This document shows, piece by piece, positions 16,548 to 54,663 of a stretch of 64,000 bases of DNA. The notes below the pieces were generated by a model. The model was not told the DNA's origin, did no database searches, and was given only the letters and a program-made list of their open reading frames with translations. Position numbers and translations under genes: made by a program. The DNA comes from Pseudomonadota bacterium (lineage in GTDB: Bacteria; Pseudomonadota; Alphaproteobacteria; Sphingomonadales; Sphingomonadaceae), in contig JBCBSU010000002.1 of assembly GCA_039818985.1 (NCBI GenBank), forward strand, positions 62,001 through 126,000, given 5' to 3'. Each line of letters begins with the position of its first letter. Positions within the stretch are counted from its first letter, which is position 1.

Positions 16548-18242
16548 TTAGGTTCCGATGCGGACTTGTCCTTCCTCACGTTCACTGACGCCAACCGAAG
16601 CTGTTGCCTGATCAACCCGAACCAGCGCTTGTCCCAATGCTTCTATTTGCATCGGCCCGCCGCTTTTGCGGATCGCCAGCTTTGCCTGTCCGCGCAGGCG
16701 CGCATCGGTTTTTCCGGAGACGCCGGGAATGGACATTTCCGTCTGACCACGCAGCGCAGCCAACAGATCGCCATCGACACTCTGAGCGGCAATGCGATGC
16801 TGTCCTCGCCCATTGATCATCAGCCTGTCGCGTACATTCCCGATCCGCGCTACGCCGCAACCACGAAACGACACGTCGAGACGGACGCTATCCGATGCGA
16901 CTGTGTAGACATATCCCCCTATTTGCACCGGGAGTCCGTGGGGAATGCGAAGCGTCGCAGTGCCGATCCGTCCGCCCGAGCTCAACCGATCGAGCGCGAG
17001 TGAATTGCATTCATCCGCGGTCGCGATGTGATGGCCAGCCAACCGCAGAACCCCGCCTTTCGAAGTGATGGAAGGGCCGTTTGGCGAGACTGAAAGCAGT
17101 GCGTCCTCGCGATCTTCCGAAACGATCCGCAAAAGGCCACCGAACTGCTTGATCTCCACAGCTGAGGGATTTGTCATTCGGTAATGCTCTGGCTCTGCCT
17201 TTGGCTGATCATGTCGATCAGCAAGCGCCAGCACCTCGTCCATCTGCTTAGCCGGATCGGGCAATGAGGAGAAGGAAAGTCCGTTTCGCAGGTCGGCAAA
17301 ACCGCAACCGGACAGCGCTATCAGCGCTGCAATTGATCCCATGCTTGCAGTCTGTCCAAAGAAGTATCGGCGATCAAGCGCATCGAAACGATGTGTCATG
17401 CGGGAACCGCTGTGCCACGCGCACGAGACTGGCGGGCTCGCCTCATTAACTACGACCGCCAGAAGCGTCTCGGCGTAGCTTTTGCGCGATATGCCGGTCG
17501 TACTGAGAACCACCGCGTCACATGCGATCTCCTGGTCGCATTTTAGCGCTCTGACCGCCCAATAAGCCAGCGGGTTAAACCAGAACACAGTGTTTATTAG
17601 CAAAGCGACGAGATTGATCAGTGGGTCGCGCCGGTCGCGATGGGCCATTTCGTGCTGCAAGACGACCTCGTGCTGTTGGGTGTTGTAGCGTGAGTCAAAG
17701 TCCTCGGGAACGACGACGATCGGTCTGAATATGCCCAAGAGCATGGGGCTAAATCCGGTGCGAGAGGCCACCATGATAGGCACCCCATCGATAGACGATG
17801 GGCTTAGCCTGCCAAGATCGCGAACGAATTTCCTGTGCCGCCACAGAGCGTAAAAGAGAAAGGTGGCGGCTCCGCTCGCCCAAAGAGCAAAAAGCAACGG
17901 CCAACCACCGACAATTGCCGTTCCGTCGGGCGCCCCCTGGGCTCGAGGAGGAGGGACATCCATTCTGTCGAGCCTGCGCTCAACATCGATAGCTTGTGAA
18001 CCGATAGCTTCCGCGACAGGTGTAAGATCTGGAGAGGTCGCAAACAGGCCAACCCAGGCAGGGGCATCGTCGAAACCGGGCATGACGCTTGCGAGCATCA
18101 GAACCGGAACCAGTATCCATGACCGATAGAGGGCCTGCGGGCTCAAGAGGCCCCTGCACGCCCATCGCAGCAGCGCGACCATCAGAATCCCGACTATACC
18201 CGCCACCGTCAGGTCGGCCAGAAAGAGATCAGCATCAGTCAT
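16548..18242 (-). CDS. M56 (BlaR1/MecR1-type) membrane metallopeptidase with GIN/DUF2807-like C-terminus
   Basis: A 564-residue sensor-protease. Membrane helices at about 8-28, 40-55 and 112-134 precede the M56 domain, whose zinc motif is HEMAH (197-201) with the third ligand in CDQEIACD (about 238). A helix near 300 is followed by a periplasmic region (355-564) that resembles the GIN/DUF2807 adhesin-like beta-solenoid (GNVRDRLMINGRGQHRIAA and the repeats after it). The penicillin-binding sensor of BlaR1 is absent. In BlaR1 systems the protease relieves BlaI repression. Its start overlaps the blaI-type gene by 8 bases, so the two are co-translated. Confidence 0.85.
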   Translation of the reverse strand: MTDADLFLADLTVAGIVGILMVALLRWACRGLLSPQALYRSWILVPVLMLASVMPGFDDAPAWVGLFATSPDLTPVAEAIGSQAIDVERRLDRMDVPPPRAQGAPDGTAIVGGWPLLFALWASGAATFLFYALWRHRKFVRDLGRLSPSSIDGVPIMVASRTGFSPMLLGIFRPIVVVPEDFDSRYNTQQHEVVLQHEMAHRDRRDPLINLVALLINTVFWFNPLAYWAVRALKCDQEIACDAVVLSTTGISRKSYAETLLAVVVNEASPPVSCAWHSGSRMTHRFDALDRRYFFGQTASMGSIAALIALSGCGFADLRNGLSFSSLPDPAKQMDEVLALADRHDQPKAEPEHYRMTNPSAVEIKQFGGLLRIVSEDREDALLSVSPNGPSITSKGGVLRLAGHHIATADECNSLALDRLSSGGRIGTATLRIPHGLPVQIGGYVYTVASDSVRLDVSFRGCGVARIGNVRDRLMINGRGQHRIAAQSVDGDLLAALRGQTEMSIPGVSGKTDARLRGQAKLAIRKSGGPMQIEALGQALVRVDQATASVGVSEREEGQVRIGT

Positions 18243-18597
18243 CGTCGTCCCAGCGCTCGATCATCTCGCGCAGCTTGGCGATGTCGGCCTTCGATAGCTT
18301 CTTTCGATCTGCGAAATAGCTGACCAGAGGGGAGAATTCACCAGAAAAAGCGCGCTCGAGTACGCCTGTTGAATCGAGATATTCTTCGCGTGACACAGCG
18401 GGCCGAAAAAGGAAGCGTCTGCCATCCTTTTCGGATGCGATCGCACCTTTCTCCCTGAGCCGCGTGATCAATGTGCGCACAGTAGGTGGCTCCCATCCTT
18501 GCTCCGGTCCAACCGTGGAGACAAGCTCCTCGGCTGTTTGAGGGCTTCTGTTCCAGAGGGCGCCGAGTATTACGCTTTCAGCATCGGTGATCTTCAT
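18235..18597 (-). CDS. BlaI/MecI/CopY family transcriptional repressor (copy 1)
   Basis: A 120-residue winged-helix repressor. It opens with ITDAESVILGALWNRSPQTAEELV and carries the recognition segment PPTVRTLITRLREKGAI typical of BlaI/MecI. The C-terminal half is the dimerisation region that an M56 partner would cleave. It is the first gene of a two-gene unit with the M56 peptidase. Upstream, 18621-18630 reads TACGTTTGTC, an imperfect version of the TACnnnTGTA sites found near other genes here, beside a TTGACA (18632-18627 on this strand). Autoregulation is therefore plausible but weakly supported. Confidence 0.9.
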   Translation of the reverse strand: MKITDAESVILGALWNRSPQTAEELVSTVGPEQGWEPPTVRTLITRLREKGAIASEKDGRRFLFRPAVSREEYLDSTGVLERAFSGEFSPLVSYFADRKKLSKADIAKLREMIERWDDDD

Positions 18598-18727
18598 GCA
18601 GCAAGCATCGGCCAGACTTTTACGTTTGTCAAACTCCAGATCATTGAGCCTGCGATCTCATTGAAATAGTCAAGTCTACCATGTTGCTGCACTTCTGAAT
18701 GGGAGTCCCGGCATTAGTTTGCAGATG

Positions 18728-19897
18728 TCAATAGCCTTGCATTATCGCAATACGCTCATCGTCCTCGATCAGCCGCGCTATCTTTCCGAGCAGGCCTTTG
18801 CTCTCTTCGCCATTCGCGAACATGACCGCGGCGATGCCTTGATCAGGCTTGAAGAATGCAAAGGATTGCTCGGAACGGTTGCGACCAGTGTGGGCGAAGA
18901 CGGTGCCTTCTTTAAACTCATAAACATACCAACCAGTGCTGAAACCCATTCGCTGTGGACAGGCTTCGATCGGTCGCCCGTCCGGCCCGCACCGTTCGTC
19001 ACGCTCATCAAGAACAATTCCGGACCGTTCAGCAGCGCGCTTCGCGTCGACCCCGTCATTCGCCATGACAGCCGCGAGAATTCTGGCGTAGTCCGCGCTT
19101 GATATGCGCAGTCGTCCGGCACCCTCAGCTTCGTCGTAATCGCCAGGTTCGTCCCACTCGCTGTCGGCAAAACGGCCCCAAGCGTAGCGAGACTTTAGCT
19201 CTGCTATGGTGACAAAAGAAGCATCTTCGATTCCAAGCGGGTCAAACACAGTTTCACGCGCGATATCATCGAATGGCTTTTCGAGCTTTCTTTCGAGAAA
19301 GCGAGTCAGATAGACAATGCCTTCACCTGAATAGCCGCGCTCAGTGCCCGGATCGAAGGTGAATGTCAGCACGCCGTCGCTCATCCGCCGCCAGTTCCGA
19401 AATCCAGTCTGATGGGCGAGTGCGATCCTTGGGGTCAGCTGCATCCGGCGGGGATCTTCGGCGATATCAGGATCGACCCAAAATGCCGCCATAGGTTCAT
19501 CAAGCGAAACCTTGCCTTGGGTTGCCAGTCTGAGCACAATCTCACCCACAATCGGCTTTGCGATCGATGCCGTGTCGTAGAGTGTGTCTGCAGTTGCTGG
19601 GTTGCCCTCGCTGCGCTCCCCGCAGGTTAGCGTCCATTGCAGCTGCCCGCCCGCGACGTAACTGACACCGGCGCTGGGGACGGTCGATTGCCCGAGCCAT
19701 TCCGGCAAACGAGACTGGAGCGCCGTTAGCTTTTGTGTCGCCTGTGGGTTGCGATCCGACACCGGCATGTGTTGTTCGGTTGCACAATCCGGCACTGTGC
19801 CCTCTGCAATGCCTGCGACCGAGACAGGTCTGTTCGTTGCGCAACCAACCAGCGCGGCTGAAAGGACAAGCGTGGGTAAAAGGAAACGGCTGTTCAT
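18728..19897 (-). CDS. Serine hydrolase lipoprotein, beta-lactamase (class C-like) family
   Basis: A 389-residue protein. The leader MNSRFLLPTLVLSAALVGC ends in a lipobox with Cys19. The catalytic SxxK is SIAK (111-114) in YDTASIAKPIVGEIVLR; PRIALAHQTGFRNW corresponds to the LLSHTSG block, and GYSGEGIVYLTRFLE and FAHTGRNRSEQ to the Tyr and HTG regions. ATG at 19897 is chosen because CGAGGA stands 6 bases before it; the frame stays open upstream to 20089 but that part holds the operator. A 22-bp palindrome with a BlaI-type core lies 61 bases upstream, and blaI-M56 genes follow 130 bases downstream, so control by that pair is likely. Whether it hydrolyses beta-lactams is unknown. Confidence 0.88.
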   Translation of the reverse strand: MNSRFLLPTLVLSAALVGCATNRPVSVAGIAEGTVPDCATEQHMPVSDRNPQATQKLTALQSRLPEWLGQSTVPSAGVSYVAGGQLQWTLTCGERSEGNPATADTLYDTASIAKPIVGEIVLRLATQGKVSLDEPMAAFWVDPDIAEDPRRMQLTPRIALAHQTGFRNWRRMSDGVLTFTFDPGTERGYSGEGIVYLTRFLERKLEKPFDDIARETVFDPLGIEDASFVTIAELKSRYAWGRFADSEWDEPGDYDEAEGAGRLRISSADYARILAAVMANDGVDAKRAAERSGIVLDERDERCGPDGRPIEACPQRMGFSTGWYVYEFKEGTVFAHTGRNRSEQSFAFFKPDQGIAAVMFANGEESKGLLGKIARLIEDDERIAIMQGY

Positions 19898-19957
19898 TAT
19901 CATTCCTCGCATCATGGATATGGGCACTTCTCCAGCTCGGTTCATGAGCATATCTAA

Positions 19958-19979
19958 AATTATTACATATGTAATAATT
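19958..19979. promoter_or_regulatory. 22-bp palindrome with BlaI/MecI-type operator core
   Basis: A perfect 22-bp palindrome with core TTATTACATATGTAATAA. The central TACATATGTA (19964-19973) equals the classical TACA/TGTA half-sites of BlaI/MecI operators. It lies 61 bases before the serine hydrolase start, where its promoter should be. A BlaI-type repressor gene stands just downstream of the hydrolase. Confidence 0.75.
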
Positions 19980-20096
19980 AATCTCGCAGCAGATGCAAGC
20001 GGAACTTTCTGCATCAAACGATCCTGCCTAGCTTGAACTCCAGGAATGCTGGTATCGAAACGCCTTACGGCTTCGCAACAGGTCGGCATCAGCTGA

Positions 20097-20118
20097 TAGT
20101 AGAATATCTACAAGCGTA
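20097..20118. promoter_or_regulatory. Second BlaI-type site upstream of the hydrolase pseudogene
   Basis: On the minus strand 20118-20109 reads TACGCTTGTA, which fits TACnnnTGTA. It overlaps a small palindrome GTAGA-ATA-TCTAC (20099-20111). It lies 21 bases before the ATG of the decayed serine hydrolase, so the pseudogene once probably shared control with the intact divergent hydrolase gene. Confidence 0.5.
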
Positions 20119-20138
20119 GTAATAAAGAGGTGATCGTG

Positions 20139-20437
20139 ATGCGTTTTGCAGGAATTCTCCCTTCGCTCTCGATGATGGCAGTGACCCCGGTTTTCCCCGC
20201 ACGGCTTTCGAAGCCGGCTCGGTTACCAAGCCAGTTTATGCCCATCTGGTGATGGGTTTGGTCGAGCGGGGCGCTATCGACCTCGACACCGTTCCTGCCG
20301 TGACCTTTTTCTGTCGCCGACCAGGAAGCCTATCGTACACTCATCTTACGCCAGTTCCTTTCGCACCAGTCCGGTCTGGAATGACCGCATTGAGCACCTC
20401 ACTACCCAAAGCAGACGGTCCGCAAATCAAGCCATGA
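20139..20437 (+). pseudogene. Decayed serine hydrolase (beta-lactamase family)
   Basis: Fragments of one hydrolase lie in alternating frames. ATG at 20139, with an AGAGG ribosome site, opens a signal-peptide-like segment (MRFAGILPSLSMMAVTP). From about 20201 a different frame gives FEAGSVTKPVYAHLVMG and then ERGAIDLDT, with the SxxK motif at 20219-20230. From about 20310 the first frame returns with LRQFLSHQSGLE, the family LLSHTSG block, then a stop at 20382. The C-terminal two thirds are missing. It diverges from the intact relative at 18728-19897. Bases 20438-20528 hold nothing recognised. Confidence 0.75.
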
Positions 20438-20528: not shown

Positions 20529-21443
20529 TCAGCGGCGGCAGCGCACCGTTGCCGTGGCCGTGCCGCGATAGGTGGTATCGGTTGCCTTGCGTGTCGTCTT
20601 TGGCACGGAATTGCTCGATATCACTCGTCCGCCTTGCGACTGACAGGCGGACCGGGCGGAATTGAGGGCCGCAGAGCGTGCTGCCTGGCTGGCAGCGCTG
20701 CTCGAGCGCAGCAACCCGCTCGTTCCGGAACGGGTAATCGTGAACACACTCGATCCCGACGATCCGCTCTGTCGCCCGCTCGCGGAACGGCTGGCACCTG
20801 CGACTGCACGACTTTGCGGTGTATCATAGGCTCCACCGGCAATAGTGCTGCGGTGATAGAGTTTGCGCGAATTGCCATAAGTCCGATCAAAGACGAACTG
20901 GCGCCGCCGGAATGGATCGCCCGCAGCAAGAATTGAGGATGGCAGGTTGCTTTCATCAAGGCGATTGTAGCTCAACACCGAGATATTCCCATTGCCAAGC
21001 TGGCGAAACGCCAGATCGAGATAGACAAGGTCACCGAAAGTCTGGCCATTGCGGGCCTGGAAACCGCGCTCAATCACAACACCGAGACGGTAGCCGGTTG
21101 CTGTCTTCTGGCATGCATAATCACTGCGGCCAATCAGTTCGGGCATCATGGCCATCCGCGTCACCTTCCAGGTGACGATGCCCAGCTCATTCTTGTTCTT
21201 CTGGAATGTGTCGAACAATTCCCGGCCATTCACACATGATCGGGTACCATTGGCGCTCTCGCAATAGGTGCGCTGCTGCGAATTGAACACCACACCCATG
21301 TGGATCAGGTCATTCAGGCCATCCTCAATGTGATAGAGGCCATTATTGCAGTCATTCTTGTCGAGGCGCTGGGCAAAGGCCTGTCCGCTCGACGCCGCCA
21401 ATGCCAGCACGCCCAGAATGATCCAGCGTAATGCCGATACCAT
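20529..21443 (-). CDS. Secreted protein of unknown function with Ser-rich region
   Basis: A 304-residue protein with a signal peptide (residues 1-24, cut after GQAFA). The mature N-terminal half has paired cysteines (NDCNNG, TYCESANGTRSCVNG, DYACQK). Residues about 205-270 are rich in Ser, Arg and Ala (ASGRQSGSSGSS), and the tail has two more cysteines (SACQSQGG, TVRCRR). A strong GGAGGG ribosome site supports ATG at 21443. No family recognised; the cysteine spacing suggests a periplasmic or exported role. Confidence 0.75.
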   Translation of the reverse strand: MVSALRWIILGVLALAASSGQAFAQRLDKNDCNNGLYHIEDGLNDLIHMGVVFNSQQRTYCESANGTRSCVNGRELFDTFQKNKNELGIVTWKVTRMAMMPELIGRSDYACQKTATGYRLGVVIERGFQARNGQTFGDLVYLDLAFRQLGNGNISVLSYNRLDESNLPSSILAAGDPFRRRQFVFDRTYGNSRKLYHRSTIAGGAYDTPQSRAVAGASRSASGRQSGSSGSSVFTITRSGTSGLLRSSSAASQAARSAALNSARSACQSQGGRVISSNSVPKTTRKATDTTYRGTATATVRCRR

Positions 21444-33801: not shown

Positions 33802-33940
33802 GACCCGGTTATTACCGCTTTACGCTACGGGAAAAACGGTAAAATCGTCTTTCGATACAGATGTAACATTGACGTTGTGGTCCGTCTGATAGATGGTAAA
33901 AAACACCATAATTATAAGGCAAAGGGGATCGCCTGGAACC

Positions 33941-52587: not shown

Positions 52588-54204
52588 TCAGCCGCGTTCA
52601 GCCTCGAGCCGCGCAATCTGGCGGTCGAATGTCTTCATCAGCTTTTTGCGCAGTTTTTCCGGAATGTCGGTTTCCCGGGCAATATCGTCACGGGCTTCGC
52701 GCAGTCCTTCGAGCGCACCGGCGCGCGCCTCGGCCAGCCGCTCGGCACTGCATACCCGAACCCTCAGCAGGGTGCGGCCATCCTTGCTGCTGGAGGTGAC
52801 TTTCTCGGTCTCCTCGCCCTCGGAACAGTCACGCGAAAAGCTGAGCTCCGGGATCATCGCTTCGACATCGAGATTCTCCAGCGACTCAAACGCCATTGCA
52901 CGGGCCTCGACTTCAGCCTGGCGGGCGCTGGCTTCGGCCTCGGCACGAATGGCTTCGACTTCAGCCTCGCTCAACTGCGCCTTGACCATCATCGCGCGCG
53001 CCTTGGCCTCTGCCCTGGCGGCTTTCTTCTCGACGATCTCGCGTTCGATCATGACGACCTTTTTGTCAGCCATGGCCAGTTCGACCACCACAGTGTCAGT
53101 CGGTGCCTCAGGCTTCACGACAGCCACGGGCTTCGGTGCAACGGGCGCCACCATGGCAGCGGCTGCAACCGACGGAACCGGAGCCACAGCCTTTACCGGC
53201 TTGACCACACAGGCATAGCTTACCGTGGCAGTCAGAGCGAGGGCAGCCGCAGTACCCCCCAGCATACTCGCGGAGCCAAGAATATGGCGCGCACGCGATT
53301 TGGGTTTCTGATTCATGAGAATAAGCCTCTCTTTCAACTTGTTTCTGGGCGTGAGTGGGCTCCCCAAAGCCAATGTGCGTCCCGTCGCTGCCTTGGCGAT
53401 CAGACGGCTATATTGTGCGCGTTCCTCGGCATCGGCGCTGGCCAGGACACGGGCGTCACATGCCGCCTCCTGATCGAAGCGGAAATAGCGATAGGCAATC
53501 CAGGCGAGTGGATTGAACCAGTGCAGCGCCAGCAGGATTATGGCGGCGAAATTGGCCCAAAGGTCGCGCGCCCGGTGATGCGCCAGTTCGTGGCGCAGCG
53601 CCAGATGCTGCTCGGTTTCCGTGTAACGCAGCGAGAAATCGACCGGCACCGCGATGTAGCGACGGAGCACGCCAAAGGCGAACGGCCCTTCTATGCCCGC
53701 AACCTCGATCACGCGAATATCGCCAATGCGGCGCAACTCACGCGCATCGACAAGGATTTCGCGTCGCTGCTGCAGATAAATGGCGAGTTCGACGATCAGG
53801 AAGATCGCGGCACCGCCGAGCCAGACAACCATCAGCACCGGCCAGATATCGAAGTCCGTCAGGCCGACGCCGACGGTCTGCTCGGCAAGACCCGATGGCG
53901 GCAGGTCGCGTCCCTGTGCGGACGCCCCTGCCGCCACCCGGCCGGCAATATCGCTGCCCCATGCGGTGACCGGCGCTTCGATGACCACCTTTTGCGAGAA
54001 AGCCGGCAGGAACAGCCGTGCCAGCGGGATCAGCCACAACAGATAGCCGAGTTGCGGCCCGAAGAGATGTGCCACCGGGCGGCGGAGAAGCATCACGATG
54101 ACGATAAGCAGCGCCGTGGCCACCAGCGTATCGCTGCTCCACAACAGCCAGGTATCGGCGGAAAACAGATGTGCGAGGGTGTAGTTTCCGGTGAAGTCGC
54201 TCAT
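52588..54204 (-). CDS. M56 (BlaR1-type) membrane metallopeptidase with coiled-coil tail
   Basis: A 538-residue sensor-protease, second of its type here. Membrane helices near 25-42, 50-68 and 118-143 precede the zinc motif HELAH (205-209) and DQEAACD (about 244-250). After a fourth helix (about 312-335) the periplasmic part is a long Ala/Glu/Lys coiled coil (AARAEAKARAMMVKAQLSEA and on) with two cysteines (SRDCSEG, VRVCSAE) and no penicillin-binding domain. Its start overlaps the BlaI-type gene by 4 bases. The likely role is signal-dependent removal of that repressor. Confidence 0.87.
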   Translation of the reverse strand: MSDFTGNYTLAHLFSADTWLLWSSDTLVATALLIVIVMLLRRPVAHLFGPQLGYLLWLIPLARLFLPAFSQKVVIEAPVTAWGSDIAGRVAAGASAQGRDLPPSGLAEQTVGVGLTDFDIWPVLMVVWLGGAAIFLIVELAIYLQQRREILVDARELRRIGDIRVIEVAGIEGPFAFGVLRRYIAVPVDFSLRYTETEQHLALRHELAHHRARDLWANFAAIILLALHWFNPLAWIAYRYFRFDQEAACDARVLASADAEERAQYSRLIAKAATGRTLALGSPLTPRNKLKERLILMNQKPKSRARHILGSASMLGGTAAALALTATVSYACVVKPVKAVAPVPSVAAAAMVAPVAPKPVAVVKPEAPTDTVVVELAMADKKVVMIEREIVEKKAARAEAKARAMMVKAQLSEAEVEAIRAEAEASARQAEVEARAMAFESLENLDVEAMIPELSFSRDCSEGEETEKVTSSSKDGRTLLRVRVCSAERLAEARAGALEGLREARDDIARETDIPEKLRKKLMKTFDRQIARLEAERG

Positions 54205-54572
54205 TTTTTCATCTCCTTCAGGAGACGCTCAATGTCGGCAATATCCTCATCGGAAAATGCCTCGCGCTCTGCCAGATGGGCGAAAAGCGGCCCGGCGCGA
54301 CCGGAAAACAGGCGATTGACAAAGCGGGTGGACTCACCGGCGACATAATCGGCGCGCGCCAGCAACGGTCGGTAGAGATAACGGCGGCCATCTACGTCAT
54401 GGGCAATGGCACCCTTGTTCGCCAGCCGCGACAACAGGGTCTTGACCGTTTGCAGCGACCATTCGCGCTCAGCCGGCACCTGCTCGGCAATTTCCGAGGC
54501 GGTCAGTGGTGACTGGCGCCACAGGCAGTCCATCACCTCAAACTCGGCTTCGCTGATTCTCTCTTTCGGCAT
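54201..54572 (-). CDS. BlaI/MecI/CopY family transcriptional repressor (copy 2)
   Basis: A 123-residue winged-helix protein (MPKERISEAEFEVMDCLW; SLQTVKTLLSRLANKGAIA). The start ATG at 54572 follows a strong GAGGAGGG ribosome site; the frame is open further upstream to 54668 but that part contains the operators. Two inverted TACnnnTGTA sites 21 bp apart lie 61-91 bases upstream and suggest autorepression. It forms a unit with the M56 gene. Confidence 0.92.
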   Translation of the reverse strand: MPKERISEAEFEVMDCLWRQSPLTASEIAEQVPAEREWSLQTVKTLLSRLANKGAIAHDVDGRRYLYRPLLARADYVAGESTRFVNRLFSGRAGPLFAHLAEREAFSDEDIADIERLLKEMKK

Positions 54573-54632: not shown

Positions 54633-54663
54633 TACATGCGTAAGCGTAACGACTACGCCTGTA
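54633..54663. promoter_or_regulatory. Paired BlaI-type operators
   Basis: TACATGCGTA (54633-54642, TACGCATGTA on the other strand) and TACGCCTGTA (54654-54663) are inverted copies of TACGC[A/C]TGTA with starts 21 bp apart, two helical turns. They lie upstream of the second blaI gene. Confidence 0.65.

What the first reader, a model, noticed from the sequence alone, without database searches (positions are those of the whole stretch)
18235..20437. BlaI-M56 pair next to a serine hydrolase with a canonical BlaI-type operator
Seen: a 22-bp palindrome whose core is TACATATGTA stands 61 bases before a serine hydrolase lipoprotein gene, and a blaI-M56 operon follows. Known: BlaI/MecI repressors bind TACA/TGTA dyads and M56 proteases trigger their loss. 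Inferred: a complete signal-repressor-hydrolase circuit in a Gram-negative genome with an unknown inducer.
Basis: partly seen in the sequence, partly recalled or inferred. Interest (0 to 1): 0.75.

Follow-up and report, generated by a model that had tools for sequence, protein, structure and literature searches.

The report
BlaI-type switch on an envelope hydrolase
A Gram-negative bacterium carries a relative of the repressor-protease switch that staphylococci use to sense penicillin, but here it sits behind an exported enzyme of unknown substrate and its sensor half is of another kind, so it probably answers to some other signal at the cell surface.

Summary
A perfect 22-bp palindrome (19958-19979, core TACATATGTA) lies 61 bp before a PF00144 serine-hydrolase gene with a lipoprotein-type start; blaI1 and an M56 protease gene follow on the same strand after 130 bp. 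A 70%-identical hydrolase in an Erythrobacter MAG keeps the dyad in a diverged promoter. New: (1) a second BlaI-type dyad (20109-20118) before the remains of a divergent serine hydrolase; (2) the pair groups with a lineage of another family of the order, in which a serine hydrolase stands directly behind M56 in 6 of 13 loci, against 0 of 31 loci of the common blaI2 type; (3) blaI2, the second pair in the window, has its own dyads (28 of 29 relatives); (4) TACANNTGTA sites are few; they include sites before serine hydrolases, a secreted esterase, an AhpC/TSA lipoprotein and, in two relatives, blaI2, but also unrelated places. M56_1 shows no penicillin-binding sensor and the hydrolase lacks KTG, so a beta-lactam inducer is not supported. 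Best reading: an autorepressed hydrolase-blaI-M56 operon opened by proteolysis on an unknown envelope signal. New variant of the BlaI-BlaR1 kind; binding and inducer untested.

The parts
19958..19979 (.). 22-bp perfect palindrome AATTATTACATATGTAATAATT, BlaI-type operator
   Evidence: dyad also before the related hydrolase in L065, 68 bp before the start of the match, 62 bp before the likely ATG
18728..19897 (-). serine hydrolase, PF00144, lipoprotein-type N-terminus; SIAK (S111), YSG (Y189), HTG (H336)
18235..18597 (-). blaI1, BlaI/MecI-family repressor, 120 aa; Tyr94-Phe95 aligns with MecI Asn101-Phe102
   Evidence: BlaI cleavage site Asn101-Phe102 from PMC9834060, passages only
16548..18242 (-). 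M56_1, BlaR1-like metallopeptidase, 564 aa, HEMAH at residue 197; C-terminal ~245 aa without a family match
20109..20118 (.). second BlaI-type dyad TACAAGCGTA (CTACAAGCGTAG 20108-20119), before the divergent hydrolase remnant
   Evidence: two TACn4GTA in these 221 bp occurred in 0 of 5000 Markov copies
20126..20380 (+). remnant of a divergently oriented PF00144 serine hydrolase (GSVTK motif, then a change of frame, rest not recognisable)
   Evidence: home-made hydrolase HMM: 3e-10 and 3e-4 in two frames, collinear
54201..54572 (-). blaI2, the common BlaI type of the family (start codon inferred)
52588..54204 (-). M56_2, partner of blaI2
54633..54663 (.). two blaI2 dyads, TACATGCGTA 54633-54642 and TACGCCTGTA 54654-54663, 21 bp apart
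33856..33865 (.). TACAGATGTA 27 bp before the listed start of a RodZ-like gene; candidate site only

Best explanation
Hydrolase, blaI1 and M56_1 form one operon. A BlaI-family dimer (most likely BlaI1) sits on the 19958-19979 palindrome, which overlaps the presumed promoter, and keeps hydrolase, itself and the protease low. A signal outside the cytoplasm acts on the C-terminal domain of M56_1; its HExxH protease then cuts BlaI1, the operon opens, and the exported hydrolase acts on a substrate in or outside the envelope that may be linked to the signal. Shown: gene order, domain content, operator and its conservation, recurrence of the arrangement elsewhere. Inferred: operon transcription, binding, proteolysis, topology of the sensor domain, a non-beta-lactam inducer and the substrate.
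For: Palindrome 61 bp before the gene. Relative L065, 70% identical over 1-389: ATTACATGTGTAA (12 of 13 bases) is the longest conserved stretch of an upstream region that aligns poorly. BlaI1 matches MecI and BlaI structures and shares T-x-RTLITRL with MecI; M56_1 aligns with BlaR1 through HExxH and the later Glu. Ten loci of another family of the order group with this pair (local support 0.877); of all 13 loci returned there, 6 have a PF00144 gene directly behind M56 and tandem dyads before blaI, against 0 of 31 blaI2-type regions, 30 of them with 2.6-3.2 kb behind M56. In the MAG, 4 TACANNTGTA sites: before its blaI, before this hydrolase, before a second PF00144 gene, and before a topoisomerase-I-like gene. 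Own genome: 6 sites, each 15-87 bp before a likely start, two of them PF00144 genes.
Against: No binding or expression data. No orthologue-like blaI1 was found in 148 other genomes of the family (best 46%), nor M56_1 in 395 of the order at E<=1e-20 (best 28-39%, N-terminal part; one match reached residue 423), so co-inheritance of hydrolase, operator and this blaI cannot be tested; in the MAG the contig ends 60 bp behind the hydrolase and the one BlaI found is blaI2-like. No sigma-70-like promoter passed the scan. TACANNTGTA is necessary but not sufficient for CopY binding (PMC7253601, passages). No TACn4GTA stands directly before blaI1. The number of sites in the genome (6) is near the about 4 expected when the shuffles are scaled up. 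Only 6 of 13 f5 loci have the hydrolase, and in genus-mate G023 most sites lie in reading frames.
Confidence: 0.65

Rival explanations
1. The palindrome is chiefly a target of BlaI2, the common family repressor; blaI1-M56_1 is a neighbour that answers to something else or cross-talks, and the hydrolase is one member of a BlaI2 regulon of exported enzymes.
For: In genus-mate G108 no blaI1 or M56_1 orthologue was found, yet dyads stand before hydrolase2, the AhpC/TSA lipoprotein, the esterase and blaI2. In the MAG only a blaI2-like BlaI was found although the operator before the hydrolase is conserved. Both operator types share TAC-n4-GTA.
Against: The focal palindrome is AT-rich (TTATTACATATGTAATAA) and lacks the GAYTAC arm common at blaI2 operators; blaI1 stands directly behind the hydrolase; the MAG contig breaks there.
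Confidence: 0.25
2. A classical beta-lactam-inducible penicillinase operon in a Gram-negative.
For: BlaI, M56 and a protein of the beta-lactamase superfamily with a BlaI-type operator; the class C HMM matches weakly (6e-10).
Against: M56_1 has no Pfam match but M56 and a sub-threshold M48, so no transpeptidase-type sensor was found; 78 bits against a cut-off of 400 for blaR1_generic; the hydrolase scores 38 against 415 for class C and has YSG and HTG in place of YAN and KTG (the class C motifs are recalled).
Confidence: 0.07
3. The palindrome is a chance AT-rich inverted repeat or a site of another factor, and the hydrolase is not under BlaI control.
For: 22-bp palindromes arise in 8 of 100 Markov windows of 64 kb; such sites are not in excess in the genome.
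Against: 1 of 5000 in the local sequence; exact BlaI core; conserved before the L065 gene; linked to blaI; recurrence with PF00144 genes in other genomes.
Confidence: 0.05

Closest known systems
blaI-blaR1-blaZ/blaP and mecI-mecR1-mecA of Staphylococcus/Bacillus (partly recalled)
   Same: BlaI-family repressor, M56 protease with HExxH, TACA/TGTA dyad before a beta-lactamase-superfamily gene
   Different: no penicillin-binding sensor domain found, output is a PF00144 protein without KTG, hydrolase comes first and in line with blaI-M56, Gram-negative host
blaI2-M56_2 of the same genome and its relatives in the family
   Same: repressor-protease pair, TAC-n4-GTA dyads
   Different: tandem dyads mostly 21-22 bp apart where there are two, no hydrolase in 31 regions, different C-terminal region; BlaI 41% identical
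BlaI-M56(ankyrin)-PF00144 loci of another family of the order (L188-L190, L196-L198)
   Same: related BlaI-M56 lineage with a serine hydrolase beside it, in L190 and L197 also a divergent one across the dyads
   Different: C-terminal ankyrin repeats in those scanned, hydrolase behind M56, dyads 33-35 bp apart
M. tuberculosis BlaI with its BlaR1 homologue
   Same: BlaR1 homologue without an equivalent sensor domain (PMC9834060, passage)
   Different: other phylum; regulon not compared

Membership tests
BlaI/MecI repressors | Penicillinase_R domain over the gathering score | tested here: met
   103.8 against 22.6 bits
BlaI/MecI repressors | recognition helix like MecI | tested here: met
   alignment (that this stretch is the recognition helix is recalled)
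BlaI/MecI repressors | binds a TACA/TGTA dyad | not testable with these tools
   site present and conserved; binding untested
BlaR1/MecR1 signal transducers | M56 domain with HExxH and downstream Glu | tested here: met
BlaR1/MecR1 signal transducers | C-terminal penicillin-binding (class D-like) sensor | tested here: not met
   no such domain in Pfam or NCBIfam scans, no PDB sequence match; fold not determined
Class C beta-lactamase | SxxK, YxN, KTG (recalled) | tested here: not met
   SIAK present; YSG and HTG instead; far under the NCBIfam cut-off
PF00144 serine hydrolases | domain over gathering score with SxxK and Tyr | tested here: met
   124.9 against 27 bits; S111, Y189
bla operon | BlaI, BlaR1 and target gene in one regulated unit | tested here: inconclusive
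   same strand, gap 130 bp, no terminator-like site in the gap; transcripts not tested

The most novel reading that the evidence does not exclude
BlaI-M56 in these bacteria is a general envelope-response module with interchangeable sensor domains (ankyrin repeats, the unknown domain of M56_1, the Ala/Glu-rich region of M56_2) that controls exported serine hydrolases, an esterase and an AhpC/TSA lipoprotein and has nothing to do with beta-lactams; the focal locus is a specialised extra copy with its own hydrolase and a decayed second one.
Probability: 0.4. Interest if true: 0.65.

Novelty: new variant of a known kind. Interest (0 to 1): 0.48.

Why it matters
BlaI-M56 pairs are readily read as beta-lactam resistance switches. 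Here the sensor part differs and the candidate outputs are a small, partly conserved set of exported hydrolases, which gives concrete operators and reporters with which to look for the real inducer of BlaR1 relatives outside the staphylococci.

Tried and rejected
Depletion or enrichment of TACANNTGTA in whole genomes: the tool's reversed-pattern control is far higher (31 against 6 in this genome), but I judge that it is inflated because it lacks the rarer TA steps, so I claim neither; scaled about 4 sites are expected.

A first control for hydrolases beside blaI2-type genes (0 of 51 loci) used loci too short to show the gene behind M56 in most cases; it was replaced (31 regions, one of them, L232, with only 391 bp behind M56).

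Class C beta-lactamase and BlaR1 membership: tested, not met. Anti-phage defence: only a weak Csa3 match for BlaI1 (0.007). Plasmid origin: hydrolase relatives on plasmids are all under 60% identical (34% at best in the 15 rows shown) and no plasmid record covers 80% of M56_1.

AlphaFold2 of M56_1 and of its last 245 residues, single sequences: mean pLDDT 37.6 and 35.6, no use; no fold search was run. The two models disagree on the last 80 residues.

Hydrolases several kb from blaI2-type genes (L105-L111): these regions were picked because a hydrolase was near, so they are not counted as linkage.

Literature: ten searches. In their listings I saw no paper on a BlaI-M56 system of sphingomonads or on ankyrin M56 proteins; only an open-licence library was searched, and some listings were partial (20 of 541 papers). 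Passages only were seen of PMC7253601, PMC12578637, PMC7593790, PMC12864828, PMC9834060 and PMC8457756; PMC12864828 and PMC12578637 were false leads (surname Blair, catalogue number M5625).
Full report
What is there. On the minus strand stand a PF00144 serine hydrolase with a lipoprotein-type N-terminus (19897-18728), blaI1 (18597-18235) and an M56 metallopeptidase gene (18242-16548); the palindrome AATTATTACATATGTAATAATT at 19958-19979 is 61 bp before the hydrolase ATG. It is the only perfect palindrome of 18 bp or more in the window. Length alone could be chance over 64 kb (8 of 100 Markov windows reach 22 bp) but hardly locally (1 of 5000), and the TACANNTGTA core is expected 0.09 times per window and found twice.

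Conservation. One scan of the species genomes, which works through short peptide patterns and finds close relatives only, gave two matches: a 70%-identical relative over the full length in an uncultured Erythrobacter MAG, L065, and one at 20%. In L065 the dyad ATTACATGTGTAA stands 68 bp before the start of the match (62 bp before the likely ATG); in the alignment of the two upstream regions it is the longest conserved stretch (12 of 13 bases), the rest aligning poorly. The contig ends 60 bp behind the gene, so blaI cannot be seen; the one BlaI found in that genome is 36% identical to BlaI1 and 56% to BlaI2 and has the family's dyads before it.

A second, broken hydrolase. On the + strand at about 20126-20380 a PF00144 remnant reads GSVTKPVYAHLVMGLVERGAIDLD in one frame and continues collinearly in the next (home-made HMM of 67 sequences, 3e-10 and 3e-4), then stops matching. 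A dyad TACAAGCGTA at 20109-20118 precedes it; the same 10-mer stands before the blaI gene of L058. Two TACn4GTA sites in these 221 bp occurred in none of 5000 Markov copies. I infer that the locus once had divergent hydrolases, each behind a BlaI-type site.

Two BlaI-M56 pairs. The genome has two BlaI proteins by PF03965, both in this window. Of 149 genomes of the family 96 have a BlaI match; 29 non-self loci were held from that search, and all are nearer to BlaI2 (54-66%) than to BlaI1 (38-44%). 28 of these 29 have a TAC[AG]NN[TC]GTA within about 120 bp before blaI, 14 of them two, 21-22 bp apart in 12 of the 14; none of 11,600 random 130-bp windows from the rest of the same loci has one. The two other genomes of the genus have no M56_1 orthologue (30-33% at best). 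In a FastTree of 66 distinct BlaI+M56 rows (71 loci, 5 duplicates merged) the focal pair groups with the ten rows of another family of the order, f5, with local support 0.877.

The f5 loci. All 13 f5 loci that the M56 search returned were examined. A PF00144 gene stands directly behind M56 in 6 (L188, L189, L190, L196, L197, L198); five of these are among the ten rows of the tree (L198 was fetched later). In L190 and L197 a second one is divergent across the dyads. L191, L193, L194, L195, L199 and L200 have none, and L192 is cut at the end of M56. As control, 31 blaI2-type regions (the 29 loci above and the two genus-mates) show no hydrolase anywhere in the fetched stretch, 30 of them with 2.6-3.2 kb behind M56 and L232 with 391 bp. 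The C-terminal parts of the f5 M56 proteins scanned are ankyrin repeats in 7 of 7 (L188, L189, L193, L195, L196, L197, L198); the other six loci were not scanned. The M56_1 C-terminus has no match in Pfam or NCBIfam and only a chance-level one in PDB sequences, and structure prediction failed (pLDDT 37.6 and 35.6). None of the nine M56 proteins scanned with Pfam shows a transpeptidase-type sensor.

Other sites. TACANNTGTA occurs 6 times in this genome, each 15-87 bp before a likely start: the focal hydrolase; a secreted 415-aa PF00144 hydrolase (15 bp); a secreted PF00756 esterase (52 bp; the site is the centre of an inverted repeat with 18-bp arms around CT); an AhpC/TSA protein with a lipoprotein-type start (87 bp); an AI-2E-family transporter (72 bp); a RodZ-like gene (27 bp to the listed start). 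In genus-mate G108, 5 sites: the 415-aa hydrolase orthologue (86% identical, identical dyad), the AhpC/TSA orthologue (84% over 184 aa), blaI2, a 140-aa protein with a signal-like start, and one inside a reading frame; its esterase orthologue (86%) has TACGTATGTA at 50 bp. In genus-mate G023, 8 sites: one 4 bp before a divergent BlaI, the others mostly inside reading frames, so the regulon is not seen there with this pattern. In the Erythrobacter MAG, 4 sites in 3.6 Mb: its blaI, the focal hydrolase, another PF00144 gene with a lipoprotein-type start (GACTACACATGTAGTC, 21 bp from the 10-mer to the ATG), and a gene that starts like topoisomerase I (named by eye, 19 bp). TACGNNTGTA: 6 in this genome, 3 of them at the two bla loci, 2 inside reading frames, 1 before a doubtful frame; 10 in G108, of which 4 are before likely starts (blaI2, the esterase, two exported proteins) and 6 inside frames. 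Numbers of sites are near chance; the places of many are not.

Mechanism. The best reading is an operon repressed by a BlaI dimer on the palindrome and opened when M56_1, signalled through its C-terminal domain, cuts BlaI1; Tyr94-Phe95 of BlaI1 aligns with Asn101-Phe102, the cleavage site of staphylococcal BlaI (PMC9834060, passages only). The promoter scan found no consensus promoter; by eye TTGC lies about 24 bp before the dyad in both species, which would put the dyad on the -10 (inference). Work on CopY warns that TACANNTGTA is necessary but not sufficient (PMC7253601, passages). Which BlaI binds is open: in G108, where no blaI1 was found, BlaI2 would have to serve the shared sites.

Names.

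Verdict.

Noticed in passing
L188, L189, L193, L195-L198: M56 proteases of another family of the order carry C-terminal ankyrin repeats (up to 917 aa in all) where BlaR1 has its penicillin sensor.
   Followed up: partly
L163:1765-1802: Inverted repeat with 18-bp arms around CT, centred on TACACTTGTA, 52 bp before a secreted PF00756 esterase with TPR repeats; a dyad TACGTATGTA is at the same place in G108 (L184).
   Followed up: partly
L004:1501-1512 and L166:1674-1685: TTACATTTGTAA / TTACATCTGTAA before an AhpC/TSA lipoprotein-like gene in two species, with a further conserved block CCCCATATG.TGCGAA behind it.
   Followed up: partly
window 33856-33865: TACAGATGTA before a RodZ-like gene; conservation in relatives not tested.
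   Followed up: no
L160:2201-2210: G023 has a second, divergent BlaI (34% to BlaI1) with TACACATGTA 4 bp before its start and an M56-like frame behind it.
   Followed up: no
window 20529-21443: 304-aa protein with a signal-like start and no clear family match beside the broken hydrolase.
   Followed up: no
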